A stretch of DNA of 64,000 nucleotides, from NCBI RefSeq assembly GCF_000306785.1, contig NC_017955.1, positions 4,216,001-4,280,000 on the forward strand, read 5' to 3'. Under the pieces are notes generated by a model. That model did no database searches. It saw only the letters and a program-made list of their open reading frames with translations, and was not told the origin of the DNA. Origin of the DNA: Modestobacter italicus. GTDB taxonomy: Bacteria; Actinomycetota; Actinomycetes; Mycobacteriales; Geodermatophilaceae. Positions 20,467-58,166 of this stretch are shown piece by piece. The stretch's first letter is position 1, and every line of letters starts with the position of its first letter. Position numbers and translations under genes: made by a program.

Positions 20467-20520
20467 GGACCCCGTCCTCTTCACCCCTCGCACGCTCGGG
20501 GCGAGCCTCTGGACGGGGCC
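20467..20520 (+). repeat. Structured intergenic element, copy 1
   Basis: This is a 54-bp nested hairpin. The outer stem is CCCCGTCC (20470-20477) with GGACGGGG (20511-20518). Inside, an inner stem CCCC/GGGG closes the loop TCGCACGCTC. Copy 3 at 58113-58166 on the other strand matches it at 49 of 54 positions, and two of the five differences form a compensating base-pair change in the outer stem. Sits directly behind a stop codon, so a terminator or mRNA 3-prime element is likely. Confidence 0.75.
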
Positions 20521-20540
20521 GAAGAGGAGGGCCGGGCGCT

Positions 20541-20567
20541 GGGGGCGTCGTCAGGGACGACGCCCCC
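20541..20567. terminator. Hairpin terminator between convergent genes
   Basis: GGGGGCGTCGTC at 20541-20552 pairs perfectly with 20556-20567 around a 3-nt loop. It lies 11 bp past the stop of the minus-strand tannase-like gene and downstream of the plus-strand gene at 20084. Confidence 0.75.
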
Positions 20568-20577
20568 GGCGGCCGGG

Positions 20578-22185
20578 TCAGCGGGGGGCGGGGGCCAGCT
20601 CCGTGGCGCGGACGCAGCGGTAGCTGCCGGCGTCGGCGGGGTCGCCGTGACCGACCAGCCGGGCCACCTTCGGGTAGGCGCACAGCGGGCGGGTCGCCAC
20701 GACCGCCCCCTCGGCGTCGACCCGCTGCGCGGTGAGGGTCCGCGGCGCGTTCCCGTTCTCCACCCAGTCGACGAGCGCCTCGAACTGACCGACCGGCTGC
20801 GGCCCGGCGCCCCCGCCGCAGTGACCGACGCCCGGGGCGAGGAACAGCCGGAGGAAGTCCTTCGTCCTCCCCGGGCCCAGGGTGTCCTCGACCCGCTCGA
20901 CGTAGTCGACCGTGCCCTGGAACGGGACGCCGAAGTCGGCCGCCCCGTGCCACAGCAGCGCCTTGCCGCCGGAGTCGGCGAACGCCGACAGGTCGGGGTC
21001 GTCGGCCGAGAGCACCGCCGTGTACATCTCGATCGACTGCTGGAAGAACTGCTCGTAGCCGGCGTAGGTCAGCGTCCGCCAGTCCCAGGCCCGGTCCTGC
21101 GCCAGGAACAGGCCGATCCACCACAGGTCGTACTGGAACGGCTTCCCGACCAGCTGGCCGTCGACCACCTCGGTGTCGTTGAGCCCCGCGTACGGCGTGC
21201 CGGGCGCCTGGCCGTACCAGAGGAACTCCCCGTCCTGGGTGCGCGGCCCCTCGGCGATGCGGCGCATCACCTCGACGTCGCCGGCGGTGATGTCCCCGCA
21301 CGGGGTCGGGGTGCCGACCAGCGTGCCGAGGTCGAAGGAGCAGCCCAGCGGGTCGCCGATCACGCCGTCGACGACGCCGTCACCGACCGTGTCACAGGCC
21401 GCGACCGTGGCGGCCAGCGCCGCCTCGAACTTGCAGGGGGCGACCGGGTTGGCCTCCTCCAGCATCACCACCTGACCCCACATCTGGCCGATCTGCATGC
21501 GGGAGAAGTTGACGACCGGGGCGCCGGCGAGCACGCCGTCGTAGTCGTCGGGGTACCGCTGGGCCTCCATCAGGCCCTGCCGGCCGCCGGTGGAGCAGCC
21601 GTTCCAGTAGGAGTACTCCGGGCCGGTGCCGTAGAACGCGGCGATGACGGCCTTGGCGGTGACGGTCATGTCGTGCACGCCGCGGTAGCCGAAGTCCTCG
21701 ATCGCCGGCCAGTTCAGCGTGCCGTCGGCGCGCAGCGCGAAGTCGGCCGTGGCGCCGGGGTGCCCGGCGTCGGTGGCCGCGGCGGCGTAGCCGTTGCGCA
21801 GCGGGGCCAGCAGCGAGGCCGCCGAGCCGCCGCTGAACCCGCCGCCGCCCACCGCCTGGAACCGGCCGTTTCAGGTGTCGGTGGGCAGGTGGACCCACAC
21901 GGTGACGGCGTCCCCGGCCGGCGGGTGGGTGACCGTCAGCGTGACCCGGCAGGACGCCGGCGTCGTCGCGTCACCCGGGTCGCTCACCGCCGAGGTGACG
22001 GTGGTGCCGGGCAGCGCCAGCCGGGCGGTGGTCAGCTCGGCGCAGCCGACGGGTGGCGCAGACCCCCCGGTCCCGCCGCCCGGTGGCGTGGCGCTCGCCG
22101 CGGGCGCCACCACCACCGCCGCGCCCAGGGCCAGTGCCGCCGCCACTCCCAGCGCGCGCGCCGTCCAGCGGGTCCCGTGCCTCAT
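20578..22185 (-). pseudogene. Tannase/feruloyl-esterase family secreted hydrolase, interrupted by in-frame TGA
   Basis: Read through one TGA (21871-21873, codon 105), this is a 535-codon secreted tannase-like esterase. Start ATG at 22185 with an Ala-rich signal peptide ending near APAASA. The family segment normally W-N-G-R-F reads here LPTDT-stop-NGRFQAVGGGGF, so TGA stands at a Trp codon. The rest is intact: nucleophile motif CSTGGRQGLMEAQRYP, the Cys that pairs with it, the acid in LLWHGAADFGVPF, and the base in APGVGHCGGG. Family members hydrolyse ester bonds of hydroxycinnamates or gallates outside the cell. As written the product would be a 104-residue secreted fragment; an internal restart would lack the signal peptide. 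Confidence 0.82.
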
Positions 22186-22310
22186 CCGCCTGCCACCTCT
22201 CGGTCGGTCCTCGGGGACCCGGCGGGAGCAGAGGGCAGGTGCCGCTGTGCGCCGACCAGGGACCAGCTGAGCGAGTGTGGCACGTGGTTGTGACGTGCAC
22301 CACAGCGCGG

Positions 22311-25278
22311 TCAGGACCCCTGCTGCGGCTGCTGCACGGCGTCCTCGGCAGCCAGCTCGACGGCCCGCTGGGGGTGGGCGAACGCCTCCCCCTTTTGGGT
22401 GGTGCAGCGACCAGACCCCCGACCGCCAGGCCAGCGCCCGGCCCAGCGCCGCGGGCGAACCGTCGACCGCGTCCGGCTCCCCCGGCCACCAGGCGACGGT
22501 CCGGCCGCCGGTCACGGTGAGCGTCGGGTGGACGGCGACCGACCCGGGGAGCTCCGGAACGCCGAGCCGGGCCGCGGCCAGCCCGGCACCGGGGACCTCC
22601 GCCCATCGCACGGTGCGCGCCGCCCGGCTGGTGACCCGCGCGCGGCCGGCCTGCTCGCTGGCCAGCGGCAGGTCGAGCAGGTCGGCGACCGGTCCCGGCG
22701 CCCCGCCCGCCGGGACGACGTCCGGACCGACCAGTGGCTGCAACCACGGCGCGTCGAGGACCACCGCCTCGTCGCTGACGCGGTCCGGCGCCACCCGGAC
22801 CCGGCGCGGTGGCTCGACGTCGACGTCGGCCAGCGCGGCGGCCAGGTCGGCGTAGACGGTGCGCAGCGCCGCCGGGCCGACCGTCCGCCCGGGGTCGCCG
22901 AGCCGGTCGAGCAGGTCGAGGGCGTCCTCGACGTCGGCCAATACGTCGGCCACCGCCGCCGGCGGCCGGAGCAGCGCCAGGACGTCGGCCGGCAGCTCCG
23001 GCACCGGGTCGTACAGCCCCTGCAGCTCCACGGCGTCCGGGGCGCGCAGCCGGTCGGGCCGGGCACCGTGCAGCACCGGCGACGTGCGCAGCCACCAGCG
23101 CAGGTAGCCCGGGACGGCGGTGCCGCCGAGGTCGACGTCGGCGAGCGCGGCGACCGGCAGGGCGGCCAGCAGCGGCAGCGCCCGGTCCCAGTCGCGGACC
23201 AGCTCCAGGTCGCGCACCGCGGTCAGCGGCGGCCAGACCGGCGGCGGGGCGTCGGCGGGCAGCCGGTCCAGCACGGCGTCGACCCACTCCTCGGCCCGGT
23301 CGACGTCGAGGTCGTCGGGGTCCTCGGCGGTCAGCAGCGCGAAGGTGTCCAGCACGCCCACGGCGCGCAGCGCGGCGCCGTCCTGGCCGGCGGCGAAGCC
23401 CGGGTCCAGCACGCCGAGCGAGCCGGGGGCGAGGACGTCGGCCAGCGGTGACCCCGGGCGCACCAGCTCCCCCGCCGGTGCCCAGCCGCCGTCGTCGTCG
23501 GGCAGCGCGAGCTCCGCCAGCCACGGCAGCTCACCCGGTGCGGTCCCGGCGGCGGCGACCAGCGTGAGCACGGCGACGGCCAGCGGTCCGACGTCCGCGC
23601 CGTCGTCGGCCTCGTCCAGCGAGCTCTCCACCGCGGCCCGCACGCCGGGGTCGGCGAGCACCGCGGCGGCGGTCGCCGGGCGGGCTCCCAGCCGCTCCAG
23701 CACCCGGCGGGCCGGCCCGGCCGCCGCTGCCGGGTCGGCGATGCGCAGGCCGAGCGGCCCGAGCCGGTCGGCGGGCAGCGACGCGTCGGCCAGCAGCACC
23801 CCGGCCGGGCCGTGCGCCGTCCGGCCGTCGGCCAGCGGCACCGGCAGGGCCGCGAGCTCCTCCCGGTCGGCGGTCTCCAGCGCGGCGTAGAGGCCGGCCC
23901 ACCAGGCGCCCGGCCGCTGCACGCCCCGGACGGCCTCCACGACCTCGGCCAGCCCGGCGCGGCGGACGCCGAGCGCGCCGAGCACCGCGGCGTCCGACCG
24001 CCGCGACCAGGCGGCCGGCAGCAGACCGGGCAGCACGCCGACGAGGGCGGCGACCCGCTCGTCGGTCGGGTCGTCGAGGGCGACGGCGCGGTCCGGCCGG
24101 AGCAGCGCCTCCTCCGGGTCGGCGGGCGGCAGCCAGGCGGAGCCGCGGAGCCGGTCCAGGACGGCGCCGCCCAGCACGGCGTCGAGTTCGGCGGCGGCGA
24201 GACCGGTCCGGGGCACGATCTGCAGCAGGACCGGGTCGGCCGGCAGGGCCGCGAGCAGCTCGGCATAGCCGTCGGCGGCCACAGCCACCAGGGCGTCGGT
24301 GACCGGGCCGGGCGCGACGTGCCGCCGGTCGGGGCCGAGCGGGAAGGGGGCGATCAACCGGGCCGGCAGCGACAGCGGCTCGTCGCTGGGGGTCGGGGCG
24401 TGCACGACCTGCCGGCCGGTCAGCGGGACCGGGACGCCGTCGGCCACCGGGAGAGCCCAGGTGACGGTGTAGCCGCGGCGGTCCCGCTCCTCCACCGGCC
24501 GGTCGGCGAGCAGCTCCGCGGGCAGCTCGCCGGCCCGCTGGACGACCCGCCACGTCGTCGCCCGCTCCCCGTCGGTGAGCACCCGGTCGGCGCCCTGCGC
24601 GGGGAGCGAGCTGAGGGTGCGGACGGCGCCGTCGACGACGACGTCGACCCGGGCCAGCGCCGGCAGGGCGAGCAGCAGCCCGGCGTCCAGCCCCGCCAGG
24701 GCGGCGCGGACCTGACCGGTGGCGCCGGGCCGGAGCGGGAGGACGACCTCGGTGGCGAACCCGGCCGGCGGGGCGCCGTCGGCCGGGAACGGCAGCCGGA
24801 GGACCGGGACGGCGCCGCCCCGGCGGGCCAGCTCGTCGGCGAGGGCGGGCACGGCGGCGACGGCGGCCCGGGTCTCGGCGGCGCTGAACCGGACCGAGCG
24901 GTCGGTGGAGACGACGGCCGGCTCGTCGCTGACGGCCAGCACGGCGGCGAAGCCGACGCCGAACCGGCCGACGGTGGCGCCCGCGTCCCGCTTCGCCGAG
25001 GCCCGCAGGCTGGCCAGCGCCTGGACGCCGTCGTCGTCCAGCGGGGCGCCGGTGTTGGCCGCCCGCAGCACGTCGCCGGTCAGCTCGAGGCGGAGGTGCC
25101 CCCGGTCGCCTGCGCGGGTGGCCGCGTCGGCCGCGTTCTGGGCGAGCTCGACGAGCAGCCGGTCGCGGTAGCCGCCGAGGACGAGGTCCTCCTCGGCGTT
25201 CGCGTCCTCCCGGAAGCGGGCCGGGGAGTCGGTCCAGGTGGTCAGCACCCGGCGGCGCAGCTCGGCGGGGTCAGGCAC
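22311..25278 (-). pseudogene. Sacsin N-terminal ATPase-like large protein, frameshifted near its 3-prime end
   Basis: The protein is about 988 residues. The N-terminus is a GHKL-type ATPase fold like sacsin and Hsp90: LVELAQNAADA (N box), FGVGFAAVLAVSDEP (G1 region) and a later ATPase-like strand set; the rest is Ala-Leu-Asp-rich with no known domain. GTG start at 25278. Near 22388-22396 (C5T4 on the plus strand) one extra base shifts the frame: as written, reading runs on past the gene into the tannase gene without a stop, while removing one base gives a normal tail, HHPKGEAFAHPQRAVELAAE..., and a TGA at 22311. Function unknown; possibly a chaperone. It lies 32 bp after the SpoIIE phosphatase gene and may be co-transcribed with it. 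Confidence 0.75.
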
Positions 25279-25310
25279 CTGCGCAGCATGCCCGACCGGC
25301 CGGCGGCGGC

Positions 25311-27689
25311 TCAGCGCAGCGCGCTGTGGCCCTCCGGCAGCCGCACCGGGCCGGCCGACGGCGGGCGGGGCCGGTCCTCCGGGTGCGCCCGGATCGCCAG
25401 CAGCGCGACGTCGTCCTCGACCCGGCCGGCGAGCTCGCCGAGCACCCGGTCGCACAGCTCCTCGAGGGTCAGGTGCCGCAGCTCGCGGAGCAGGCCGCCC
25501 AGCCACGCCACGCCGTCGTCGAGCGGGACGCCGCGGCGCTCGATGAGGCCGTCGGTGTAGAGCAGCACGGTGGAGCCCGGCTCGAGCTCTTGCGCGTGGT
25601 CGTACCGGGCGCGGTCCGGGTCGACGCCGAGCAGCAGGTCCGCCGGGCGCTCCAGCACCTCCACCCCGCCGTCGGGCCGCACCAGCAGCGGTGGCGGGTG
25701 GCCGGCGTTGGACCACCGCAGCACCCGGGCGCCGCGGGCGGCGTCGGCGTCGGTCTGCTCGACGGTGGCGAGCACCGCGGTGGCCAGCGTGCCGATGGCG
25801 AGGTCGCGCATCGCGCGGTCCAGGCCGGTGAGCACCTCCGCCGGGGTGCCGCCGCTGTGGTGGGCGACCCCGCGGAGCACGTTGCGCACCTGCGCCATCG
25901 CGGCGGCGGCGTGGCTGTCGTGGCCGGTGACGTCGCCGATGACGAGCACGGTGCGCCCGTCGGCCAGCAGGAAGCTGTCGTACCAGTCGCCGCCGACCTG
26001 GGCCTGCCGCGCCGCGGGCAGGTACCGGACGGCGACCTGCAGGTGGTCCGGCTCGGGCGGCTCGGACAGCAGGCTGCGCTGCAGCGCCTCGACCGTGCCG
26101 GCCAGGGCGGTGAGCGCGGTGCGCTCGGCCACCCGGGTCTGCAGCCGGTCGAGCGCCTGGGCGGCCTGGGCGGCGAAGGCGACGACCAGCTCGAGGTCGG
26201 CCGGGCCGAACGCCTGCGGTTCGGCCCATCCCACGGTCAGCGACCCGAGCAGCCGGCCGCCGCTCTCCAGCGGGACCGCCGTCCACGCCTGGCAGCCGGT
26301 GTCGGCGACGACCCGGTCCATGTCGGGGGTCAGCGCCCGGCACTCCGCCGCGTCGTGCAGCACCACGGGCCGGCGGGTGCGGGCGGCGATGCTGGCGGGC
26401 AGCGGGCCGGCCAGCGGGAGCAGCGCGTAGGTCTGCTGGGTCTCCTCGCCCAGCCCGTCGGTGATCGCCAGCCGCAGCACCGCCGGGTCGTCCGGGTCGG
26501 TCACGGCGACCGCGCCACCCTGGGCACCGAGCGCCGCGAGGCCGCGGTCCACCACGGTCGCCGCCAGCTCGTGCACCGACTCCGCGCGCCCCAGCGCCAG
26601 GGCCAGCTCGGCGAGCGCGGTCAGCTGCCGCGCGCCGCGGAGCTCCGCCTCGCGGGTCTGGATGCGGTCCAGGGTCTGGCTGCACTGCGCGGCGAACGCG
26701 ACCAGCACCTCCACCTCGGCCGGGACGAAGGCCTGCGGCTCGTCCCAGACGACGGTCAGCACGCCGATCTCCCGGTTCGGGGTGCGCAGCGGCAGGCTGG
26801 CGTAGGCCACCCCGCCGGTGGCCGCCACGACGCCGGCCATCTCGGGGGCGAACGCCAGGGACGCATCGAGGTCGGGCAGCAGGACCGGACGACCGGTGCG
26901 CGCGGCGACGCTCACCGGGAGCGGCCCGTCGAGGGGCTGCAGCTCGTAGGTCTGCTGGGTCTGCGGGCCGCCCAGCTCCGCCGAGATCACCGACCGCAGG
27001 ACGTCGCCCTCGCGGACCGCCACGGCACCACCGGGGGCGCCCACCACGGCCAGCCCGCCCTCGGTGACCACCGACACCAGGTCGGCCACCGTCTCGGCCC
27101 CGGCCAGCCGCAGCGCGACCCCGGCGAGCGCGGTGAGCCGGCCGGCGCTGACCGCCTCGGCCGCCCGGGCGTCGGCCAGCTCGAGCCCGCGGGCGTAGAG
27201 GTCGGACTCCACCTCCACGACGCGCCGCTGCAGCTCGGTGGGGTCGACGACGCCGGCGCGGCGCCGCTCGACCACGTAGTCGGTGATGTCCTCGGCACGC
27301 TGCACGACGTACGTGCACCGGCCGGCGTCGTCCAGCACAGGCGTGCTGATCAGGCTCCAGAACCGCTTGCTGTACCCACCCGCGCCGTCGGGGATGTCGT
27401 ACTCCTGCACCGGCATGGTGTCCGGCTGCCGGGTGTCGCGGGCCCGCTCGAAGGACGCCTGGACCTTGCTGACCCCGCCGTCGGCCTCGCTGTCGGACGG
27501 GTTGCCCGGGAACGCCTCGAAGACCGGCCGGCCGACCAGCTCGGCGCGGGTGCGCCCGGTGGTGGTCAGGTAGGCCTCGTTCGCCTCGACGATGACCAGG
27601 TCGGGGGTCATCACCAGGAACGGCGTCGGCAGGGCAGCGAAGACCGCGGCGACGTCGATCCCGCCGTGCGCTGCCCCGGCCTGCTCCAC
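25311..27689 (-). CDS. PAS-GAF-GAF-SpoIIE (PP2C) phosphatase
   Basis: A 792-residue signalling phosphatase. The PAS domain is at about residues 13-140 (FLVMTPDLVIVEANEAYL, then WSLISTPVLDDAG). GAF 1 is at about 190-350 and GAF 2 at about 365-520; these two are near repeats of each other, both with a Q-Q-T-Y-x-L-x-P-L-x-G-P-L-P segment. The SpoIIE/PP2C domain at about 560-760 has VGGDWYDSF, IGDVTGHD and DDVALL. It would dephosphorylate a STAS antagonist, with the one at 17839 the nearest candidate. GTG start at 27689. It differs from the RsbP-like protein at 6445 by lacking an RsbQ partner. Confidence 0.88.
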   Translation of the reverse strand: MEQAGAAHGGIDVAAVFAALPTPFLVMTPDLVIVEANEAYLTTTGRTRAELVGRPVFEAFPGNPSDSEADGGVSKVQASFERARDTRQPDTMPVQEYDIPDGAGGYSKRFWSLISTPVLDDAGRCTYVVQRAEDITDYVVERRRAGVVDPTELQRRVVEVESDLYARGLELADARAAEAVSAGRLTALAGVALRLAGAETVADLVSVVTEGGLAVVGAPGGAVAVREGDVLRSVISAELGGPQTQQTYELQPLDGPLPVSVAARTGRPVLLPDLDASLAFAPEMAGVVAATGGVAYASLPLRTPNREIGVLTVVWDEPQAFVPAEVEVLVAFAAQCSQTLDRIQTREAELRGARQLTALAELALALGRAESVHELAATVVDRGLAALGAQGGAVAVTDPDDPAVLRLAITDGLGEETQQTYALLPLAGPLPASIAARTRRPVVLHDAAECRALTPDMDRVVADTGCQAWTAVPLESGGRLLGSLTVGWAEPQAFGPADLELVVAFAAQAAQALDRLQTRVAERTALTALAGTVEALQRSLLSEPPEPDHLQVAVRYLPAARQAQVGGDWYDSFLLADGRTVLVIGDVTGHDSHAAAAMAQVRNVLRGVAHHSGGTPAEVLTGLDRAMRDLAIGTLATAVLATVEQTDADAARGARVLRWSNAGHPPPLLVRPDGGVEVLERPADLLLGVDPDRARYDHAQELEPGSTVLLYTDGLIERRGVPLDDGVAWLGGLLRELRHLTLEELCDRVLGELAGRVEDDVALLAIRAHPEDRPRPPSAGPVRLPEGHSALR

Positions 27690-27808
27690 GCGCCTCCCGT
27701 CGTCCCCCGTGACCCGGTGGCCCGGGCGTGCGCGTCGAGGGTATCCGGGGCCGCTGACCTGCCCCGGCGCTCGGCGCGACCCCGGCGGCGCACGTAGCCT
27801 GCGGTGCC

Positions 27809-29341
27809 ATGCCGCTCAGCGAGGAGTGGGACAGCGTCCCGGCCACCACCACCGGGACCCTCGACCACCCCACCCAGGAGACCTTCGAGTCCACCGACCC
27901 GGCCTCCGGCGCCGTCCTCGGGGTGTTCCCGGTGCACGACGCCGCCGCCGTCGGGGAGGCCGTGACCCGGGCCCGCGCCGCCGCGGAGCAGTGGGCGGCG
28001 CTCGGCTTCGCCGGCCGGCGCACCCGGCTGGCCGCCTACCGCGGGCACCTGGCCCGGCACGTGCACGAGCTGGCCGACCTCGTGCACCGGGAGAACGGCA
28101 AGCCGCACGCCGACGCGCTGCTGGAGATCACCCTGGCCGTCGACCACCTGGCCTGGGCCGGCGCCCACGCACGGCGGACGCTCGGCCCGCGCCGGGTGAA
28201 CCCGGGCCTGCTCGCCGCCAACCACGCCGCCTCGCTGGAGTACCAGCCGCTCGGCGTCGTGGGCGTGATCGGGCCGTGGAACTACCCGGTGTTCACCCCG
28301 ATGGGCTCGATCGCCTACGCGCTGGCCGCCGGCAACGCCGTCGTGTTCAAGCCCAGCGAGTTCACCCCGGCGGTCGGCTCCTGGCTGGCCGAGGCGTGGC
28401 GGGCCGCCGTCCCCGAGCTGCCCGACGTCCTCCAGGTGGTCACCGGGTCCGGCGGGACCGGTGCGGCGCTGTGCCGGGCGGGTGTCGGCAAGCTCGCCTT
28501 CACCGGCTCGGCGGCGACCGGCCGGAAGGTGATGGCCGCCTGCGCCGAGACGCTGACCCCGGTGCTCATGGAGTGCGGCGGCAAGGACGCCATGATCGTC
28601 GACGACGACGCCGACGTGGTCGCCGCCGCCGGTGCCGCCGTGTGGGGCGGGATGAGCAACGCCGGGCAGACCTGCATCGGCATCGAGCGGGTGTACGCCA
28701 CCAGCGCCGTCTACGACCGGTTCGTCGCCGAGGTCACCCGGCAGGTGGCCGACCTGCGACCGGGGTCGGACGAGCAGGCGACCTACGGGCCGATGACCAT
28801 GGCGAGCCAGACCGACGTCGTCCGCCGGCACCTCGACGACGCCCGCGCCGCGGGGGGCCGGGTCGCCACCGGGGGCACCGTGGAGGGCGGCTACGTCGCG
28901 CCGACGGTGCTGGTCGACGTGCCCGAGACGTCGACCGCGGTCACCGAGGAGACCTTCGGGCCGACGCTCACCATCGCCCGGGTGGCCGACGCGGAGGAGG
29001 GCCTGCGGCGGGCCAACGCCACCTCGCTGGGCCTGAGCTCGGTGTTCAGCGGCTCGACGGCGAAGGCGGTCGACCTCGCCCGCCGGATGCGCAGCGGCAT
29101 GACCTCGATCAACTCGGTGCTGACCTTCGCCTCGGTGCCCGCGCTGCCCTTCGGCGGCGTCGGCGACAGCGGCTTCGGCCGGATCCACGGCGCGGACGGG
29201 CTCCGCGAGTTCACCCGGGCCAAGGCGATCACCCGGCAGCGCTTCCCGCTGCCGGTGGACCTGATGAGCTTCCGGCGCCCCGCCGCCGCGGCCGACACGC
29301 TCGCCCGGGTCATGGGCGTCGTCCACGGCCGCCACCGCTGA
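27809..29341 (+). CDS. NAD(P)-dependent aldehyde dehydrogenase
   Basis: The 510-residue protein is of normal ALDH length. The cofactor-binding segment is IGPWNYP and later KPSEFTP; the general base Glu is in LMECGGKDAMIV and the nucleophile Cys is in NAGQTCIGIERVY; the closing motifs are EETFGPTLTI and LPFGGVGDSGFGR. Highest resemblance is to broad succinate-semialdehyde or aliphatic aldehyde dehydrogenases, but the substrate cannot be fixed from sequence. Start ATG at 27809. It is divergent from the PAS phosphatase and converges on the MFS gene, with palindromes between. Confidence 0.9.
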   Translation: MPLSEEWDSVPATTTGTLDHPTQETFESTDPASGAVLGVFPVHDAAAVGEAVTRARAAAEQWAALGFAGRRTRLAAYRGHLARHVHELADLVHRENGKPHADALLEITLAVDHLAWAGAHARRTLGPRRVNPGLLAANHAASLEYQPLGVVGVIGPWNYPVFTPMGSIAYALAAGNAVVFKPSEFTPAVGSWLAEAWRAAVPELPDVLQVVTGSGGTGAALCRAGVGKLAFTGSAATGRKVMAACAETLTPVLMECGGKDAMIVDDDADVVAAAGAAVWGGMSNAGQTCIGIERVYATSAVYDRFVAEVTRQVADLRPGSDEQATYGPMTMASQTDVVRRHLDDARAAGGRVATGGTVEGGYVAPTVLVDVPETSTAVTEETFGPTLTIARVADAEEGLRRANATSLGLSSVFSGSTAKAVDLARRMRSGMTSINSVLTFASVPALPFGGVGDSGFGRIHGADGLREFTRAKAITRQRFPLPVDLMSFRRPAAAADTLARVMGVVHGRHR

Positions 29342-29354
29342 CCGGTCACCTCCG

Positions 29355-29397: not shown

Positions 29398-29404
29398 ATC
29401 GGCG

Positions 29405-48072: not shown

Positions 48073-48090
48073 AGCAAGTACTCTGCTCGC

Positions 48091-48579: not shown

Positions 48580-48582
48580 CCG

Positions 48583-48612: not shown

Positions 48613-48623
48613 GCGGACGCCGG

Positions 48624-49379
48624 TCAGCTCCTCTTCGGGCGGTCGGCGGCGCCGATCTGCCGGCGGTGGACGACGGCGTCCCGGCTGAGCGCGAGCAGGC
48701 CGTCGGTGAGGGCGTCGGCCGCGGCCTGCACCTCCTCATCGGTCAGCGGGTCGAGGGCGTCGAGGATGAAGACGGCGCTGCTGGTGTCGGTGGTGATCCG
48801 GGTGCGGACGCCCTGCCGCCAGTTCCAGCGACGGCAGGTGACGCCGAGCTGGTCGCGCCAGACGACCTCACCGGGTTCGGGGTGCTCGACGGCGGGCTCG
48901 CCGGCGGCGGTGGTGTCGAAGGGCTCGTCGCCGGCGGCGCGGACCAGCCGGGGCGGCCCGGCGTAGGCGGCGCGGTCCTCCCCGCCCAGCGGGAGCAGGT
49001 GCGCGATGGACACGGCGTTGTAGACGTCGGTGATCCGGTCGATGCGCGGCAGCCCGCCGGGCTCGAGGCGGCGCAGGAGGGCCTCGACGCTGGGCCGGGT
49101 GCGCTGCGGCTTGGCACCGAACGCGCGGTAGGCCTCCCGCCAGGCGGCCGGGTGCGGCAGCTGCTCCGGCCTCCGACCGTCGAGCAGCCGGCGGGCGGTG
49201 GCCTCCGCGGCGGTGAGGACGCGCTCGCTGACCTCGTCGCTGGGCCCGCCACGGAGGCCGTCGCCGGTCACTAGCAGCGCTCGGTAGTCCGGCTGCAGCT
49301 CGAACACCGCCGCATCGACGCTCGCCGCGGCCAACCACGCCTCCGCGTCGGGGTGCGGTCGTCCGTCCTGGTGGGTCAT
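48624..49379 (-). CDS. B3/B4 (PheT editing-like) domain protein
   Basis: A 251-residue protein resembling the free-standing B3/4 domain of the phenylalanyl-tRNA synthetase beta chain: WREAYRAFGAKPQRTRPSVE, IDRITDVYNAVSI, and LGVTCRRWNWRQGVRTRITT are the family markers. In PheRS this domain edits Tyr-tRNA(Phe); stand-alone versions are uncharacterised but could be tRNA-editing or amino-acid-binding proteins. Start ATG at 49379. It lies 65 bp after the arr gene on the same strand. Confidence 0.85.
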   Translation of the reverse strand: MTHQDGRPHPDAEAWLAAASVDAAVFELQPDYRALLVTGDGLRGGPSDEVSERVLTAAEATARRLLDGRRPEQLPHPAAWREAYRAFGAKPQRTRPSVEALLRRLEPGGLPRIDRITDVYNAVSIAHLLPLGGEDRAAYAGPPRLVRAAGDEPFDTTAAGEPAVEHPEPGEVVWRDQLGVTCRRWNWRQGVRTRITTDTSSAVFILDALDPLTDEEVQAAADALTDGLLALSRDAVVHRRQIGAADRPKRS

Positions 49380-49443
49380 CTGCGGCCTCCGCCTCGGAAG
49401 ATGAGCGTCCCCGACCGTCCAGCCGGCGGCCGCGTGCGGCCCC

Positions 49444-49854
49444 TCAGTTGATGATCTCGCCGCGCTCGTCGGCACGGAGCGCCGACAGCCGGTCCCGCCA
49501 CACCTGCAGCGCCTCGGGCGTCAGCCGCGTCCAGTCGGTGACCTCACCGATGACCCTGAGCGGGGCGCTGCTGCGGTAGGACCGGGTGGGGTTGCCCGGG
49601 AACTTCCTGTCGGTCACGTTGGGGTCGTCCTCGAACGCTCCCGTGGGCACGACCGCGTAGACGCGCGGGAGGCCGTCACCGACCGCGAGTTCTGCAGCGA
49701 GGCCGGCTCCGTCACGCAGCGCGGTGAAGTAGATGTGGTTCATCACCACATCAGGGCGGTAGTTCGACCGGAACCCCGGTGTCAGGAGGTCGCCGGCCGG
49801 CAGATCGGCCTTCGTACCGTGGAAGAACGGTCCCTCGTCCGACGGGTGGCTCAT
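49444..49854 (-). CDS. arr: NAD+:rifampin ADP-ribosyltransferase
   Basis: The 136-residue protein has the length and near-consensus sequence of Arr: GPFFHGTKADL, GFRSNYRPDVVMNHIYFTAL, LPRVYAVVPTGAFEDDPNVT, FPGNPTRSYRS. By offset from Mycobacterium Arr, the catalytic His-Tyr-Asp would be His12, Tyr42 and Asp77, all present. It transfers ADP-ribose to the C23 hydroxyl of rifampin and inactivates it. Start ATG at 49854. A 16-bp palindrome centred 44 bp upstream may regulate it. Together with HelR at 3048 it gives two layers of rifamycin protection. Confidence 0.92.
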   Translation of the reverse strand: MSHPSDEGPFFHGTKADLPAGDLLTPGFRSNYRPDVVMNHIYFTALRDGAGLAAELAVGDGLPRVYAVVPTGAFEDDPNVTDRKFPGNPTRSYRSSAPLRVIGEVTDWTRLTPEALQVWRDRLSALRADERGEIIN

Positions 49855-49889
49855 CGCGGGAAGGCGGTCCTCTCGGGGGTGAACGGGCC

Positions 49890-49905
49890 CATCGCCGCGG
49901 CGATG
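49890..49905. promoter_or_regulatory. Palindrome upstream of arr
   Basis: CATCGCCGCGGCGATG is a perfect 16-bp palindrome about 36-51 bp before the arr start. It could be an operator or a leader hairpin. I could not match it with confidence to the Streptomyces rifamycin-associated element. Confidence 0.35.
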
Positions 49906-50105
49906 CTGCCCCCATCCTGACGATCGAACCAGGCCACGACGACCTCCGGTCCCCGACGGCTCGCGCACGACAGCGGACGGCGCTCAGGGAGTTGCACCGC
50001 GTCCCGGCCGGCAGCGCGCCACGGAAGGCGCGCCGGCGGGCCGGCCGCCCGGCCGCACCCGCTGCTGGACTCGGTGCCTCCACGACCCACGACGAGGTGG
50101 TCCCG

Positions 50106-50438
50106 ATGCCCAGGTTCGTCATCTTCTTCGCCTACACCCCGGAGACCTGGGGCCGCATGGTCGAGCAGCCCGGTGACCGCACGGCCGCCGTGCGCGCGTC
50201 GGCGGAGGCCGTCGGCGCCCGGCTGGAGGCCCTGTACTGGATGCTCGGTGAGGCGGACGGCATGGTGGTCCTGGAGGCGCCGGACGCCCAGACTGCGGCC
50301 GCGGTCACGCTCACCTCGGCGAGCACGGGCACGGTCCGCAGCCTGGGCACCCACCAGCTGTTCGACCAGGACGAGCTGCAGTCCGTCCTGGCCAGGGTGC
50401 GTGCCGGGCGCGCCGCCTTCCAGGCGCCCGGCACCTGA
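50106..50438 (+). CDS. GYD-domain protein
   Basis: A 110-residue ferredoxin-like barrel protein: FVIFFAYTPETWGRMVEQPG, then VGARLEALYWMLGEADGMVV, then TAAAVTLTSASTGTVRSLGTH. This matches the GYD (DUF1330/EthD-like) group, whose members form dimeric barrels and sometimes bind small aromatic compounds. Start ATG at 50106 with a moderate ribosome site. The 250 bp upstream, towards arr, hold no recognisable gene. Confidence 0.8.
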   Translation: MPRFVIFFAYTPETWGRMVEQPGDRTAAVRASAEAVGARLEALYWMLGEADGMVVLEAPDAQTAAAVTLTSASTGTVRSLGTHQLFDQDELQSVLARVRAGRAAFQAPGT

Positions 50439-50460
50439 CCGCCGCCGGTCAGCCCGCGCG

Positions 50461-50542
50461 CGGCGAGCCGGCGGCTCGCCGAAGCAGCCGGTCGGAGCGC
50501 ACAGAGCCGCCCCGGCCTTCGGAGGGGTCGGGGCGGCTCTGT
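50461..50542. terminator. Two hairpins between GYD gene and nrdJ
   Basis: CGGCGAGCCG at 50461-50470 pairs with 50472-50481. ACAGAGCCGCCCCG at 50501-50514 pairs exactly with 50529-50542 around a 14-nt loop and is the stronger terminator. Both sit in the 211 bp between convergent genes. Confidence 0.8.
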
Positions 50543-50649
50543 GTGCGTCGTGCCTGCGGTGTGTGCCGCCGACCCCCGCGAGGGAGGTCAGCGGGAGCCC
50601 GCCGGGCCACCAGCCGAGGATCCGGCCGGCGCCCCGGCGGGCGCTGCTG

Positions 50650-53544
<2,895 letters not shown>

Positions 53545-53625
53545 GGCGTGCTCCCTGGTCTGGCGTTCGGGCGTGCGGGTGGCGGCTGACGGACGTCGTC
53601 GGAAGCCGGTGGTGCGGAGTGCGGG

Positions 53626-54144
53626 CTAGCTGGGTGGAACGGGCCCGGCGTCGTCGCCGGGTGCGCCCTCGCCGGGTGGGCCCCCGGCGGTGGACGCGGG
53701 ACGCAGCCGCTTGAGCTCGGCGATCTCCTTCTCGAAGTCGGCCGCCGAGCTGAAGGACCGGTAGACGCTGGCGAAGCGCAGGTAGGCGACCTCGTCGAGG
53801 TAGCGCAGCGGCCCGAGGATGGCGAGGCCCACCTCGTTGCTGGGCACCTCGGCCGAGCCGGTGGCGCGCACCGCGTCCTCGACCTTGGCGGCGAGGACGG
53901 CCAGCTGCCCCTCGTCGACCGGGCGGCCCTGGCAGGCCCGGCGGACGCCGGCGATGACCTTGTTGCGGTCGAACGGCTCGCTGACGCCGCTGCGCTTGAC
54001 GACCGCCAGCACGGGCTCCTCCACGGTCGTGAACCGCCGACCGCAGACCGGGCAGGACCGGCGACGGCGTGTCGTCGCGCCCTCGTCGGTCTCGCGTGAG
54101 TCGATGACCCGGCTGTCTGGGCTGTGGCAGAACGGGCAACGCAC
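53626..54144 (-). CDS. nrdR: NrdR, transcriptional repressor of ribonucleotide reductase genes
   Basis: A 172-residue protein with an N-terminal zinc ribbon (Cys3, Cys6, Cys31, Cys34 in [15 protein letters not shown] and [14 protein letters not shown]) and an ATP-cone ([20 protein letters not shown]). It senses dATP/ATP and represses nrd operons. Of two GTG candidates I chose 54144: AGGAGG lies 8 nt before it, while the other GTG (54153) overlaps that ribosome site. The Pro-Gly tail after residue 150 is an extension. Candidate NrdR boxes lie at 54281-54331. Confidence 0.95.
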
Positions 54145-54280
54145 CGGGGGCACCTCCTCGTCGATCGGCGGCCCGTGGAGGGCGACCGCCCGACGCTCCC
54201 TGTGGACCGACCGGGGGACATCCGGTGGATGTCCTGGGGTTGACCTGGGGAAGCGCCTGTGGACTGACTTACATCTCTGT

Positions 54281-54331
54281 CACTACAAGATGTTGGGGTG
54301 AGGTTAACCCCGCACCACTACAGGTACAACC
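54281..54331 (-). promoter_or_regulatory. Candidate NrdR boxes upstream of nrdR-nrdJ
   Basis: Two copies of CACTACA-x-G occur at 54281 and 54316, 35 bp apart. The first (CACTACAAGATGTTGG) is a recognisable imperfect palindrome of the actinobacterial NrdR type; the second lacks a good right half. A 6-bp pair ACATCT/AGATGT (54271, 54288) overlaps the first. The stretch is AT-richer than its surroundings. It is about 140-180 bp upstream of the nrdR start. Confidence 0.5.
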
Positions 54332-54410
54332 TCTGGGCCCCGGCGCGTCTTCCCCCGTCGCGTGCGCCCCGCCCGTCCCACGCGCCTGACCGGCCCGTTC
54401 CGACCCGGCG

Positions 54411-55019
54411 TCACGGCAGCTGCAGCACCGCACCCGGCAGCAGGTCGACGTCCCGGAGCCCGTTGAGGTCGACGATGGCGTCGACCACGGCCCGCGCGTC
54501 CTCCTCGGGGGCCACCTGCCGGGCCAGCGACCAGAGCGTGTCGCCCGGCTGCACCACGACGGTCGAGGACCCGGCCAGCTCCAGCCCACCCCGCTCGGCG
54601 TTGAGCTGGACGGTGACCACGGTGGCCGCGGCGATGGACAACCCCACCGCGATCGACAGCCCGGCGACCACCCGGCGGCCCCGCTCGGTGAGCCGGACCG
54701 GGATGAACTCGTCGGGCGCCGGCCGCCACCCGGCGACCGCGCGCGCCGGCGCCGCGCGGCGCTCCCCGCCCTCGACCGCGCAGCCCCCGCGGACCGGGCG
54801 CCCGGACGCCGGCGCACCGGCCCACGCCGGCCGGGCCCCCGGTCGGGCCGGGTCCCGCCGGGAGGTCGCCGGCGCGGCCGCCCGGGGGCCGCGCCCGGCC
54901 GGCACGCCGCAGCGCGCGGCCGCCGGCGGGACGGCGACCGGCCGGGAGGCGAGGCGCTCGGCCGGGAACTCGGACAGCGGCGCGACGGGGGGAGGGACAC
55001 GGCGCTGGGGGCTGGTCAC
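54411..55019 (-). CDS. LysM protein, ChiZ/YneA-like SOS division inhibitor
   Basis: A 202-residue protein with a Pro/Arg-rich cytoplasmic N-terminus (about 115 residues), one transmembrane helix ([20 protein letters not shown]) and an extracellular LysM domain ([16 protein letters not shown]...[20 protein letters not shown]). Position next to and divergent from lexA matches Mycobacterium Rv2719c (ChiZ), a DNA-damage-induced inhibitor of septation. The intergenic region carries LexA boxes and a PafBC-type promoter facing this gene. GTG start at 55019 after CAGGAG. Confidence 0.82.
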
Positions 55020-55094
55020 GAGGGCGCTCCTGGGGTCAGACGGTGCCGGGCGGCGGGACGGGCCGTGCGACCGACCAGGCGTGGAGCACTGCCC

Positions 55095-55127
55095 TCGAAC
55101 GCCTGTTCGATTCGAACGTCTGTGCGA
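55095..55127. promoter_or_regulatory. Two LexA (SOS) boxes side by side
   Basis: Box 1, TCGAACGCCTGTTCGA at 55095-55110, is a perfect 16-bp palindrome of the actinobacterial SOS consensus GAAC-N4-GTTC. Box 2, TCGAACGTCTGTGCGA at 55112-55127, differs at one position. Box 2 lies at the start-site side of the promoter facing the LysM gene, so LexA would repress that gene. Confidence 0.9.
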
Positions 55128-55150
55128 TGTCTACCGCATCCCACCGACAA
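55128..55150 (-). promoter_or_regulatory. PafBC-type (RecA-independent) DNA-damage promoter for the LysM gene
   Basis: Read on the minus strand, TTGTCGGTG (55142-55150), then an 8-nt spacer, then TAGACA (55128-55133). The mycobacterial RecA-independent damage promoter is TTGTCRGTG-N8-TANNNT; only the last base of the -10 departs. Next to LexA box 2, it gives dual control. Confidence 0.75.
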
Positions 55151-55174
55151 GTCCAGCCCCTGACACCGACTTCT

Positions 55175-55216
55175 TCGAACAGGTGTTTGAACTACACGGG
55201 TGTGACCCGCTACCGT
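55175..55216 (+). promoter_or_regulatory. LexA box 3 and probable lexA promoter
   Basis: TCGAACAGGTGTTTGA at 55175-55190 is a one-mismatch SOS box. It overlaps a possible -35 TTGAAC (55187-55192), followed by 18 bp and TACCGT (55211-55216). The lexA ATG is 99 bp further on. The arrangement fits LexA self-repression. Confidence 0.7.
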
Positions 55217-55314
55217 TCACCTGCGATCGAGATCGGGATCGCCGCGCCGGCCCCGCCCGGAGTGCGGCGACGCACCCGGGAACCGCTGCCCCGGCAGCCG
55301 GACGAGGAGGACAC

Positions 55315-56121
55315 ATGGCGGTCGACGGCCCGACGGCAGGCAGTGGCAAGGGCTCCGCGCGGCGCGGTCGCGCCGGGGAGACGGGGGCGGCCGGCGCCGG
55401 TGCGGCGATCCGGGAGTTCCCCGACCGCGGCGAGGCCGGCGACGGGCTGACCCAGCGGCAGCGCCGGGTGCTCGAGGTCATCCGCGACTCCATCGACCGC
55501 CGCGGCTACCCGCCCTCGGTCCGCGAGATCGGCGAGGCGGTCGGGCTCTCCTCGGCCTCCTCGGTGGCCCACCAGCTCTCGGTGCTGCAGCGCAAGGGCT
55601 GGCTGCGGCGCGACCCGAACCGCCCGCGGGCGCTCGACGTCCGGCTCCCCGGCGAGACCGCCGTCATGACCGAGGCCGCCGAGCCCGCCGCCGGGCCGCT
55701 CGCGGCCTCCGGTGGCGCCAGCGGCGTGGACGAGGCCGCCGCGCCCCGCCCGACCTACGTGCCGCTGGTCGGCCGGATCGCCGCGGGTGGCCCGGTGCTG
55801 GCCGAGCAGGCGGTGGAGGAGGTCTTCCCGCTCCCCCGCGAGCTGGTCGGCGAGGGCACGCTGTTCATGCTCAAGGTCGCCGGTGACTCGATGGTCGACG
55901 CCGCCATCTGTGACGGCGACTGGGTCGTCGTCCGCCAGCAGCCGACCGCGGAGAACGGCGAGATCGTGGCCGCCATGATCGACGGCGAGGCCACGGTGAA
56001 GACCTACAAGCGCCGCGACGGGCACGTCTGGCTGATGCCGCACAACGAGGCGTACGAGCCGATCCCCGGCGACGACGCCACCGTCCTGGGCCGGGTCGTC
56101 ACCGTCCTGCGCCGCGTCTGA
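55315..56121 (+). CDS. lexA: LexA repressor of the SOS response
   Basis: The 268-residue protein has an N-terminal winged helix ([39 protein letters not shown]) and a C-terminal autoprotease domain. The cleavage site is Ala157-Gly158 (VGRIAAGGP), the nucleophile Ser192 (AGDSMVD) and the base Lys229 ([10 protein letters not shown]). There is an N-terminal extension of about 40 residues, common in actinobacteria, and a 40-residue linker. ATG at 55315 behind GAGGAGG. Upstream SOS boxes indicate autoregulation. Confidence 0.97.
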
Positions 56122-56125
56122 GGAA

Positions 56126-56181
56126 GGACCCCCTCTCCCCCCACCACTCGCAGGCTCGTGGCGGGGACCTGAGAGGGGGCC
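56126..56181 (+). repeat. Structured intergenic element, copy 2
   Basis: The outer stem is CCCCCTCTC (56129-56137) with GAGAGGGGG (56171-56179). The inner stem CCAC/GTGG closes the loop TCGCAGGCTC. Compared with copies 1 and 3 the inner stem has changed by compensating bases (CCCC/GGGG to CCAC/GTGG) while the loop keeps TCGCA-N-GCTC. It lies between the convergent stops of lexA and the propeller gene. Confidence 0.75.
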
Positions 56182-56187
56182 GGGTGG

Positions 56188-57261
56188 TCAGCCTTGCTGG
56201 CGGCGGCGGAAGCGGCCGACGAGCCACACCAGGGTGGTGGCGACCAGGGCGGCGATCAGCCCGGCCGTCAGCGGGCTCACCGAGCGGGCGAGCCCGCCGT
56301 CGGCCGAGGCGTCCTCGGCCGGGCCGGTCGCCGCGGCCGGCTCGAGCGCGCCGGACGCGGGCACCAGGGTCACCGTGGCCGGCAGCCCCTCCCCCGACAC
56401 CAGCAGGTCACGGCTGTTCGCGGCGAACGTGATCGCCTCGCCCTGAGGTGAGTCCGGCAGCGGCACCCGGACCGGGGAGCCGCCCAGTGCGCCGACCACG
56501 TCGGAGCCGACCAGCGGCCAGACGTAGGCGTCGGTGTAGGTGCGCAGCGCGATCCGCTGGCCGTCGGGCGAGACCGACCCGCCGGTGACGAGCAGCTGCC
56601 CGGCGCGCCCCACCGGGCCGCCGGGGGTCCCGGTGAGGGTGAACCCGAGCCGGAGCACCTGGCTCATCGGCACGGTGGCGTCGTCGGCGAGCGGGCCGTC
56701 GGGCCGGTAGACGGCGCTGGCCCCCAGCACCTCCTTGGTGACCACGTACGGCGTGCCGTCCGGCGCCAGCAGGAGGGCCTCGGCGTCGTGCGGGCCGTCC
56801 GGGTAGGTGAGCCGGGTCAGGGTGGAGCTGCCGTCCGGGCGGAGGCCGATGAGCGCCACGGTCTCCCGGGTCTGGTTGTTGTCCCCGGTGTCGGCCAGCC
56901 AGATCGTCCCGTCCCCGGCCAGCGCCAGGTCCTCCGGGTCGTAGGGGTCGACGTCGGCGGAGCGGACCTCGCCGATCGCGCAGCCGCCGTCGAGGACGAA
57001 CACCTCGGCACGGTCGCCCCCGTCGTTCATGGCCAGCATCGAGTCGCCGGCGCTGGCCAGCCCGGAGAGCTCCGGCAGCCGCGGGTCGGTGACCGCGCAC
57101 CGCGTGCTCGGCTCGCCGTAGGGCGCGGCGTCCGCGCCCTGGGCGACGGCCGGGGCGACCGGCAGGACGGCGAGCACCAGACCGAGGGGCGCGCCGAGGG
57201 CCGCGCGGCCCGCTCTCCGGCGTCCCGCGCGGTCAGGGCTGCGAACGGCCCGCTCTGGCAC
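56188..57261 (-). CDS. Secreted, membrane-anchored propeller-like protein
   Basis: About 357 residues. A signal peptide (LGLVLAVLPVAPAVAQG) leads to a beta-propeller-like domain with repeated D-G-strand units (ELSGLASAGDSMLAMNDGGD, DPEDLALAGDGTIWLADTGD, DAEALLLAPDGTPYVVTKEV), then a C-terminal transmembrane helix (LTAGLIAALVATTLVWLVG) and FRRRQQG. The topology is outside with a single anchor. Function unknown. The GTG at 57261 lies inside the upstream phosphatase gene (29-bp overlap), so coupled translation is likely; an ATG at 57297 is an alternative. Confidence 0.7.
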   Translation of the reverse strand: MPERAVRSPDRAGRRRAGRAALGAPLGLVLAVLPVAPAVAQGADAAPYGEPSTRCAVTDPRLPELSGLASAGDSMLAMNDGGDRAEVFVLDGGCAIGEVRSADVDPYDPEDLALAGDGTIWLADTGDNNQTRETVALIGLRPDGSSTLTRLTYPDGPHDAEALLLAPDGTPYVVTKEVLGASAVYRPDGPLADDATVPMSQVLRLGFTLTGTPGGPVGRAGQLLVTGGSVSPDGQRIALRTYTDAYVWPLVGSDVVGALGGSPVRVPLPDSPQGEAITFAANSRDLLVSGEGLPATVTLVPASGALEPAAATGPAEDASADGGLARSVSPLTAGLIAALVATTLVWLVGRFRRRQQG

Positions 57262-57958
57262 GGACCCAGCGTGACACCACGACAGCGTCGAGTGCATGAA
57301 CCACGCCCAACAGCAGCAGCCCGACGGCCAGCCCCACGACCGCGTCGGTGACCCAGTGGAAGTCCAGCGCCACCATGGCCACGCCGGTGCACAGCGGCCC
57401 CAGGATGCTCAGCGCCCAGGTGGTGCGCTGCGTCCAGGCGGGCAACCCGTACTCCACGGCCGTCCACCGGGCGACCCCCCACATCAGGACGGCGTTGGCC
57501 ACGTGCCCGGAGGGGTAGCTGGCGCCGTCCCGGTGGAAGAACGACCCGGGGTAGGCCGGCGCCGTCCGGCCGGTGCCGTACTTGAAGGCGTAGACGACCG
57601 CGGTGAGCAGGGCCAGGGCCATCAGCACGCGGACCAGGGGGACGAGGGTCCGGCGGCGGACGGCCAACCAGCCGACCAGGGCCGCCAGCACGATGAGGAT
57701 GAAGCCGCGGCCGCCGGCCTGGGTGAAGGCCCAGACGAACCAGTAGGCGTCGGAGTGCCGCAGGTCCCAGACGCTGACCACCTCGGAGACCCGGAGGTCC
57801 ATCCGCTCCAGCCAGCCCCGGTTGAGCAGGTCGACGGTGACCCCGAGGGTCACCAGCGCGGAGAGCAGCAGCACCCACCACGGCGGCCGGCCGACCCCGA
57901 TGACCGGCGCAGACCGGGAGGACGGCAGGCCGCCGGCGGCGTCCGCCATCGACTGCAC
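57233..57958 (-). CDS. PAP2-family membrane phosphatase
   Basis: A 241-residue integral membrane enzyme with about six helices and the three PAP2 motifs: KYGTGRTAP, SYPSGHVANAV and DFHWVTDAVVG (with R-x6-P, P-S-G-H and S/H-R-x5-H-x3-D equivalents; the third has H-W-x-T-D). It would hydrolyse a lipid or isoprenoid (pyro)phosphate at the membrane. The GTG at 57958 follows AGGAG with short spacing; the ATG at 57949 is the main alternative. Forms an operon with the propeller gene. Confidence 0.85.
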   Translation of the reverse strand: MQSMADAAGGLPSSRSAPVIGVGRPPWWVLLLSALVTLGVTVDLLNRGWLERMDLRVSEVVSVWDLRHSDAYWFVWAFTQAGGRGFILIVLAALVGWLAVRRRTLVPLVRVLMALALLTAVVYAFKYGTGRTAPAYPGSFFHRDGASYPSGHVANAVLMWGVARWTAVEYGLPAWTQRTTWALSILGPLCTGVAMVALDFHWVTDAVVGLAVGLLLLGVVHALDAVVVSRWVRARAGRSQP

Positions 57959-58028
57959 CGCGCTCCTGGCCACCGGGTCACGGTACCGGGACCGTGACCT
58001 GGTCGTGACCAAGACCGACCCCGGCCCC

Positions 58029-58166
58029 CTCTCAGGGCCCCGCCCCGAGCAGGTGACGCGCTGGAACGGCCCGCCTGCAGGGCCCCGCCCCGAGCCTGCG
58101 CGGGGTGGGTCAGGCCTCGTCCCGAGGCTCGCCCCGAGCTTGCGAGGGGTGAGGAGGACGAGGTCC
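58029..58166 (-). repeat. Structured intergenic element, copy 3 plus two degenerate copies
   Basis: The minus-strand copy at 58113-58166 has outer stem CCTCGTCC/GGACGAGG and inner CCCC/GGGG around TCGCAAGCTC. A second, partial copy (about 58072-58107) keeps CCCC-GCGCAGGCTC-GGGG, and the right half of a third lies at 58029-58050. All are in the 220 bp between the PAP2 gene start and the hflX stop; nothing else is seen there. Confidence 0.7.

What the first reader, a model, noticed from the sequence alone, without database searches (positions are those of the whole stretch)
20467..58166. Intergenic hairpin element with invariant loop and covarying stems
Copies at 20467-20520, 56126-56181 and (inverted) 58113-58166 share a nested-stem design around the loop TCGCA-N-GCTC. 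Copies 1 and 3 match at 49 of 54 positions and two differences compensate each other in the outer stem (C:G to T:A). Copy 2 has a compensating change in the inner stem (CCCC/GGGG to CCAC/GTGG) yet keeps the loop. Stems that vary in pairs while the loop stays fixed point to selection on structure and on a loop that something reads, beyond plain termination. Two degenerate copies lie beside copy 3. All copies sit right after stop codons.
Basis: seen in the sequence. Interest (0 to 1): 0.72.

Follow-up and report, generated by a model that had tools for sequence, protein, structure and literature searches.

The report
Mobile hairpin behind stop codons
Many bacteria of the Modestobacter family carry dozens to more than a hundred copies of a short hairpin element that lands directly behind stop codons and, in some relatives, often inside its own older copies, so its fixed loop and paired stems reflect a mobile element at least as much as a gene terminator.

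Summary
The three hairpins are real and belong to a dispersed family: 147 model matches in this genome although only 150 candidates were scored. Matches occur in 32 of 59 genomes searched (own included), all of one family, Geodermatophilaceae, and in 0 of 24 genomes of other families of the order. Stems covary strongly; the loop TCGC-N-N-GCTC is nearly fixed. But G-U pairs are almost absent, a common A-C mismatch makes the opposite strand fold better in 112 of 113 copies, and 0 of 126 copies have a U-rich tail. In 69 of 119 copies with a recognisable upstream gene the element starts two bases after TGA. At 61 orthologous sites in two relatives only 24 hold a sense copy; several are empty. In three Geodermatophilus genomes, chosen for many junctions, 20 of 29 top copies lie beside or inside another copy, some at TCG^ of its loop. 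The 'degenerate copies' beside copy 3 are 3-prime remnants of older copies. Best reading: a small mobile palindromic element like REPs or MIRUs, without the REP transposase (0 of 112 genomes), whose hairpin may act as a U-less terminator at some sites.

The parts
20467..20520 (+). Copy 1: outer stem GGACCCCGTCC/GGACGGGGCC, inner stem, loop TCGCACGCTC; begins two bases behind the stop codon at 20462-20464
20541..20567 (.). Independent plain hairpin GGGGGCGTCGTCAGGGACGACGCCCCC between copy 1 and the convergent tannase-like gene; looks like an ordinary terminator (inference)
56126..56181 (+). Copy 2, behind the LexA stop codon (56119-56121)
58113..58166 (-). Copy 3, behind the HflX-like gene (stop 58178-58180, minus strand)
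58172..58177 (-). CGAAGG: left-end remnant of the older copy in which copy 3 is lodged
   Evidence: reading of the sequence
58068..58107 (-). 3-prime part of that older copy (CACCCC-loop-GGGG...GCAGGCGGGCC)
58053..58067 (-). Tail GTTCCAGCGCGTCAC, the family's right end in the longer form
58023..58052 (-). 3-prime half of a further copy, starting inside its loop (CTGCTCGGGG...GGGGGCC)

Best explanation
The hairpins are copies of a small mobile palindromic element (about 54-58 nt, or about 75 nt with the tail GTTCCAGCACGTCAC) of the Geodermatophilaceae. Shown: it is dispersed, it sits directly behind stop codons in the sense direction, it is present or absent at orthologous sites of close relatives, and in relatives it lies inside older copies of itself, in part joined at TCG^CANGCTC of their loop. 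Inferred: a mobilising activity joins the element to TGA-type gene ends and to its own hairpins, and the loop stays fixed because it takes part in that recognition. Inferred and weaker: once placed, the stem is kept paired and can act as a U-less terminator or 3-prime-end hairpin of the gene. The enzyme is unknown; no recognisable Y1 (REP-type) transposase was found.
For: Copy number and restriction to one family. Spacing: 69 of 119 copies with a recognisable upstream gene (142 examined) have exactly two bases between TGA and the element; the second is G in 56 of 69, the first is free. A sense gene ends -14 to +2 nt from the 5-prime end in 119 of 142; an antisense gene ends within 60 nt of the 3-prime side in 56 of 142, widely spread but with 16 at 0 or 1 nt. 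Turnover: of 61 orthologous sites in G010 and G006, 24 carry a sense copy, 4 an inverted one within about 120 nt, 33 no match (remnants, other hairpins or nothing); empty or near-empty sites at s8, s11, s14, s16, s23, s29 (sites assigned by hand). Nesting: 20 of 29 distinct top-scoring copies of three Geodermatophilus genomes have another copy's 5-prime start next to them, against 3 of 210 background windows; pattern counts for the junction CTCG|TAGAAGGACC of 45-83 per genome in G104, G096, G113, G115 against 2-4 for the reversed control. 46-nt 3-prime halves joined tail|ANGCTC. lexA site: one copy in L184, nested in L231 and L209, triple in L238 (read by eye).
Against: No mobilising enzyme was identified. 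The 20 left-junction examples were chosen by a pattern that contains the junction, and the three genomes were chosen because their junction counts were high, so neither gives the share of loops among all insertion points; other copies are joined in host arms. By eye 6 of the 29 copies join at TCG^ and 2 elsewhere in a loop. In the window's genome nesting is rare (2 of 142 by the motif test, which misses copy 3). Loss of about ten host bases at the right junction is unexplained. The tail is nearly intact (15 of 126) or absent (109 of 126), so I cannot say which form moves. The terminator part lacks transcript data.
Confidence: 0.7

Rival explanations
1. A vertically inherited family of intrinsic terminators (or 3-prime-end RNA hairpins) selected at the RNA level, whose loop binds a protein or RNA; similarity between copies comes from gene conversion.
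For: Position behind stop codons; strong covariation; at one orthologous site two paired changes on an otherwise shared element (s31: CCCCGTCCC/GGGACGGGG, CCTCGTCCC/GGGACGAGG, CCTCGTCTC/GAGACGAGG); behind hflX the close relative L161 has an unrelated plain hairpin at the same place. U-less terminators near stop codons are described for mycobacteria (PMC12288462, passages).
Against: 0 of 126 copies have four or more T in the eight bases after the stem; G-T pairs nearly absent and antisense RNA folds better in 112 of 113 own and 52 of 56 relatives' copies; 28 of 142 copies are followed within 110 nt by an independent hairpin of 11 or more pairs against 20 of 710 control windows; turnover and nesting.
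Confidence: 0.15
2. A classical REP element moved by a RAYT (Y1 tyrosine transposase).
For: Short palindrome, over 100 copies, extragenic, downstream of genes, as for REPs (PMC3733652, abstract, section 6 and passages).
Against: Y1_Tnp (PF01797) found in 0 of 112 genomes of the family at E up to 0.001, while 5 of 14 control genomes matched; no GTAG tag, and the CGTC of the tail lies about 10 nt from the stem on the 3-prime side.
Confidence: 0.04
3. A MITE: a deletion derivative of a DDE-type insertion sequence, with terminal inverted repeats GAAGGACC/GGCC and a target duplication.
For: Imperfect inverted ends; insertion at defined sites.
Against: No duplication of flanking bases was noticed by eye at the empty/filled pairs (not tested systematically); around 30 tail matches in the own genome no longer element was seen in the 95 nt before and 80 nt after.
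Confidence: 0.06
4. The stem covariation is produced at DNA level (one arm templating the other, or conversion of whole copies) and says nothing about function.
For: Frequent C-G/G-C flips and almost no G-T intermediates; inner module exchanged as a block while the outer stem stays (s27).
Against: A templating process should also erase the common A-C mismatch, the bulged A and the unequal internal loop, which persist (A-C at one position in 89 of 113 copies).
Confidence: 0.05

Closest known systems
REP / BIME elements and CGTC-tagged REPs (Di Nocera 2013, PMC3733652; RepRanger, PMC12306157)
   Same: Short extragenic palindromes in high copy number, downstream of genes, heterogeneous stems and loops; CGTC REPs also lack a dedicated transposase (abstract of PMC3733652).
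   Different: Nested-stem design with a 10-nt loop, no GTAG tag, CGTC not next to the stem, Y1 transposase in 0 of 112 host genomes, fixed distance to TGA, nesting in its own copies. The held main text of PMC12306157 has 0 occurrences of Geodermatophil-, Blastococcus and Modestobacter.
MIRU, mycobacterial interspersed repetitive units (recalled; search returned no paper)
   Same: Actinobacterial, about 50-100 bp, recalled as inserted at DTGA stop-codon sites and as forming tandem arrays.
   Different: As recalled, MIRUs carry small open frames and sit in operons; here a strong hairpin, a nearly fixed loop, self-nesting, and 46 of 119 copies between convergent gene ends.
U-less ('I-shaped') intrinsic terminators of mycobacteria (PMC12288462, passages)
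   Same: GC-rich hairpin without U-tract near the stop codon.
   Different: Those are not described there as a repeated sequence family; this is one dispersed family that turns over.
IS110/IS1111 elements (PMC11208160, PMC11187229, search listing only)
   Same: Recalled: members insert into REP or attC hairpin sites.
   Different: No enzyme was linked to this family here; analogy only.

Membership tests
REP (RAYT-associated) | short extragenic palindrome in over 100 copies | tested here: met
   147 matches, 150 candidates scored
REP (RAYT-associated) | GTAG or CGTC motif next to the stem | tested here: not met
   ends are GAAGGACC and GGCC(G); the CGTC of the tail is about 10 nt downstream of the stem
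REP (RAYT-associated) | Y1 transposase in the host | tested here: not met
   PF01797: 0 of 112 genomes of the family, own genome 0
MITE | terminal inverted repeats with target duplication | tested here: inconclusive
   imperfect inverted ends; no duplication noticed by eye at the few empty sites
MITE | parent transposon with the same ends | tested here: inconclusive
   only the surroundings of 30 tail matches in the own genome were read
Intrinsic terminator | GC-rich hairpin behind a stop codon in sense direction | tested here: met
   119 of 142 copies
Intrinsic terminator | U-tract after the stem | tested here: not met
   0 of 126 copies with four or more T of eight
Intrinsic terminator | transcript 3-prime ends at the hairpin | not testable with these tools
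   needs RNA data
MIRU | insertion at DTGA (recalled) | tested here: inconclusive
   69 of 119 copies at TGA plus two bases; the published definition was not seen
Any Rfam family | match at the gathering score | tested here: not met
   0 matches in the window

The most novel reading that the evidence does not exclude
A self-targeting hairpin element: its conserved loop is itself an integration site for the next copy, so the family spreads by landing in its own hairpins and behind TGA stop codons, stacking copies like Russian dolls and leaving 46-nt cassette-like arrays. An unknown, probably structure-recognising recombinase outside the Y1 class moves it, and the family constantly re-supplies and replaces the 3-prime-end hairpins of genes across the Geodermatophilaceae.
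Probability: 0.35. Interest if true: 0.8.

Novelty: new variant of a known kind. Interest (0 to 1): 0.6.

Why it matters
If right, gene ends in a whole bacterial family are supplied by a mobile element that aims at stop codons and at itself, which would make terminator turnover visible in action. It also warns that strong covariation in dispersed hairpins need not mean a selected RNA. The empty/filled site pairs and nested copies make the insertion chemistry directly testable.

Tried and rejected
Gradual decay of the tail as evidence for selection on the stem: rejected, because the tail is nearly intact or absent (15, 2 and 109 of 126 copies with 0-3, 4-6 and 7 or more mismatches) and stem pairing is similar in both groups (7.47 and 7.23 of 8 outer pairs).

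Strand asymmetry of mismatches outside the two positions where A-C is common: own genome G-T 6, A-C 18; relatives G-T 10, A-C 6. No consistent direction, so not used.

Flank-to-flank pairing as a test of nesting: inconclusive, since flanks of different loci pair about as often (11 of 29 against 217 of 812; own 10 of 142 against 153 of 1690). Replaced by the motif test.

A loop-only target: an early impression from pattern-selected examples. A search of loci not selected for junctions found 8 candidate pairs of neighbouring starts, of which by eye two (L209, L231, one site) join in the loop, two (L080, L155) in the outer arm, and the rest are gene sequence or unclear; so the loop is one target among others.

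MFE z-scores of single copies: uninformative. Rfam: no match. Literature: the listings showed no paper on this repeat family; PMC2625358 (passages) uses BOX-primer PCR on Modestobacter isolates but the passages describe no such repeat. Only held open-access papers were searched. A role in chromosome organisation was considered and not tested.
Full report
Observation. Copy 1 stands between a 126-aa ORF without Pfam match and a convergent tannase-like gene, copy 2 between LexA and a convergent ORF without Pfam match, copy 3 behind an HflX-like GTPase with a PAP2 gene next on the same strand.

A dispersed family. A covariance model of the three copies gave 147 matches at E up to 1 in the 5.58-Mb genome; only 150 of 1662 candidates were scored, so this is a lower bound. 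I worked with 142 of these; four were not fetched and one partial match was left out. With stricter filters and at most 93 candidates scored per genome, 32 of 59 genomes matched: the window's own, 22 of 22 others of its genus, 9 of 12 of other genera of the family (as few as 3 matches in one), 0 of 24 of other families of the order. Named loci suggest the genus Modestobacter in the Geodermatophilaceae (closest HflX relatives 97% and 95% identical). The matches are uneven: 18 of the 147 lie between 1.41 and 3.28 Mb, a third of the chromosome (counted from the list).

Anatomy. Consensus read: TGA-N-GAAGGACCCC-NNNN-C-CC-CCCACNNC-TCGCANGCTC-GNNGCGGG-NCCCT-G-NNNN-GGGGCCG, with a second form typified by GACCCCGTCC and an inner CTC/GAG. 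Some copies add GTTCCAGCACGTCAC: 15 of 126 with 0-3 mismatches.

Covariation. On 32 distinct rows 97.2% of 534 cells are paired, with 62 cells changed on both sides against 14.0 in shuffles; further pair types do not exceed shuffles (14 against 13.4), and the alignment was fitted to the structure. On 108 distinct own-genome copies mutual information reaches 1.38 bits per pair, against 0.05-0.08 on average for the outer pairs when partners are slid. Rows were kept only if at least 6 of 8 outer and 4 of 7 inner pairs were Watson-Crick (111 of 142 copies; at least 5 and 4 of 8, 113 distinct), which raises the percentage paired. Against an RNA-only reading: G-T pairs are 5, A-C pairs 14 and other mismatches 21 of 904 outer cells, an A-C mismatch occurs at one inner position in 89 of 113 copies and at another in 29 of 113, and the antisense RNA folds better in 112 of 113 own and 52 of 56 relatives' copies.

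Placement. A sense coding frame ends near the 5-prime end in 119 of 142 copies; in 69 of them exactly two bases separate TGA from the element, the second of them G in 56. The other 23 copies failed my simple coding-frame test. Among the 119, 46 have a convergent gene end close by, 66 a same-strand start within 450 nt, 7 neither. The base C before the stop (82 of 119) is about as frequent as at the two preceding third codon positions (78, 79), so no longer target is seen.

Turnover. I looked up 34 occupied sites in two relatives; one query was dropped because it held element sequence, two (s18, s32) gave no site, and 61 orthologous sites were read, most with gene ends 85-98% identical. By model search, with sites assigned by hand, a sense copy was found at 24, an inverted one within about 120 nt at 4, none at 33; 'none' includes remnants and other hairpins. 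Empty or nearly empty sites by eye: s8 and s29 in G006, s11 in both, s14 and s23 in G010, s16 in G006. Some shared copies keep the stem with paired changes (s31) or keep the outer stem while the inner module differs (s27). Behind hflX, L161 has an unrelated hairpin and L164 and L165 a shortened copy.

Nesting. At the lexA site, L184 has one uninterrupted copy, L231 and L209 have a second copy joined after CCCCTCG of the first one's loop, and L238 has three copies nested, one inverted. Behind the gene holding copy 1, L241 and L244 show a copy followed by 3-prime halves of others. The pattern tail|ANGCTC, up to 3 mismatches, occurs in 74 of 112 genomes of the family; its reversed control occurred once in each of two genomes; some matches are tails without the loop half, so the count is an upper bound. 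The pattern CCNCTCG|TAGAAGGACCC, up to 2 mismatches, is near control level in most genomes but 45-83 per genome in G104, G096, G113 and G115. Reading 20 such places showed the left junction, as selected, and host copies that had mostly lost about ten bases from CANGCTC onward. Three of the high-count genomes (G115, G104, G096) were then searched with the model; 20 of 29 distinct top-scoring copies stood next to another copy's 5-prime start, 13 to the left and 9 inverted to the right, against 3 of 210 background windows and 2 of 142 in the window's genome. These genomes were chosen for high counts, so the fraction is not typical. By eye 6 of the 29 join at TCG^ of a loop and 2 elsewhere in a loop; others are in inner arms or in inverted hosts.

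Arrays. Halves joined tail|ANGCTC repeat at 46-nt spacing. In 11 of 14 arrays (L380-L393) the first hairpin, next to the gene, has 8-11 exactly complementary bases by script; L386 does by eye, L388 is complex, and L393 has a T-G interruption. Whether arrays arise by insertion or by tandem duplication is open.

Copy 3 fits this picture: the gene end is followed by CGAAGG of an older copy, then copy 3, then the older copy's 3-prime part, the tail, and a 3-prime half of another copy. L160 has nearly the same arrangement.

Mobiliser. Y1 transposase was found in 0 of 112 genomes of the family, with matches in 5 of 14 control genomes. The surroundings of 30 tail matches in the own genome showed no longer element. 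The enzyme is unknown.

Function. The hairpin could end transcription without a U-tract, as described for mycobacteria (PMC12288462, passages); titles in that review's reference list disagree on whether a U-tract is needed. Against a general terminator role: 28 of 142 copies are followed within 110 nt by another hairpin of at least 11 pairs, against 20 of 710 control windows, among them the plain hairpin behind copy 1.

Judgement. Mobility and self-nesting are well supported; the loop as an integration target is supported but its share is unmeasured; terminator function is plausible and untested. Papers seen: PMC3733652 abstract, section 6 and passages; PMC12306157 one passage; PMC12288462 passages; PMC2625358 passages; others only as search listings. 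MIRU features and the link of IS110-type elements to hairpins are recalled.

Noticed in passing
window 20541-20567: Plain strong hairpin GGGGGCGTCGTCAGGGACGACGCCCCC between the convergent genes, behind copy 1; probably an ordinary bidirectional terminator.
   Followed up: partly
G000, 1.41-3.28 Mb: Only 18 of 147 copies lie in this third of the chromosome; depletion unexplained, the origin was not located.
   Followed up: no
L380, L382, L384, L387: Tandem arrays with identical 46-nt units (3-prime half plus tail) in relatives (L387 holds a run of N), which could be variable-number repeats useful for typing.
   Followed up: partly
L277, L289, L422, L423 and G000 4358753, 1927725: A second inner module with a loop like ACGCTYCGCGC in place of TCGCNNGCTC, sharing the outer stem design.
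   Followed up: no
G000 232790, 3899784, 4925383: Sub-family starting GAAACACC instead of GAAGGACC, with similar right flanks (GGCCGGGCAGAGCCCT or close), seemingly recent relatives.
   Followed up: no
window 14217-16287: Three diverged direct repeats spaced about 900-950 bp (D1 and D3), apparently one protein domain repeated three times.
   Followed up: no
own-genome copies: The common A-C mismatch is a G-U pair on the opposite strand, so the antisense strand is the better folder; unexplained.
   Followed up: partly
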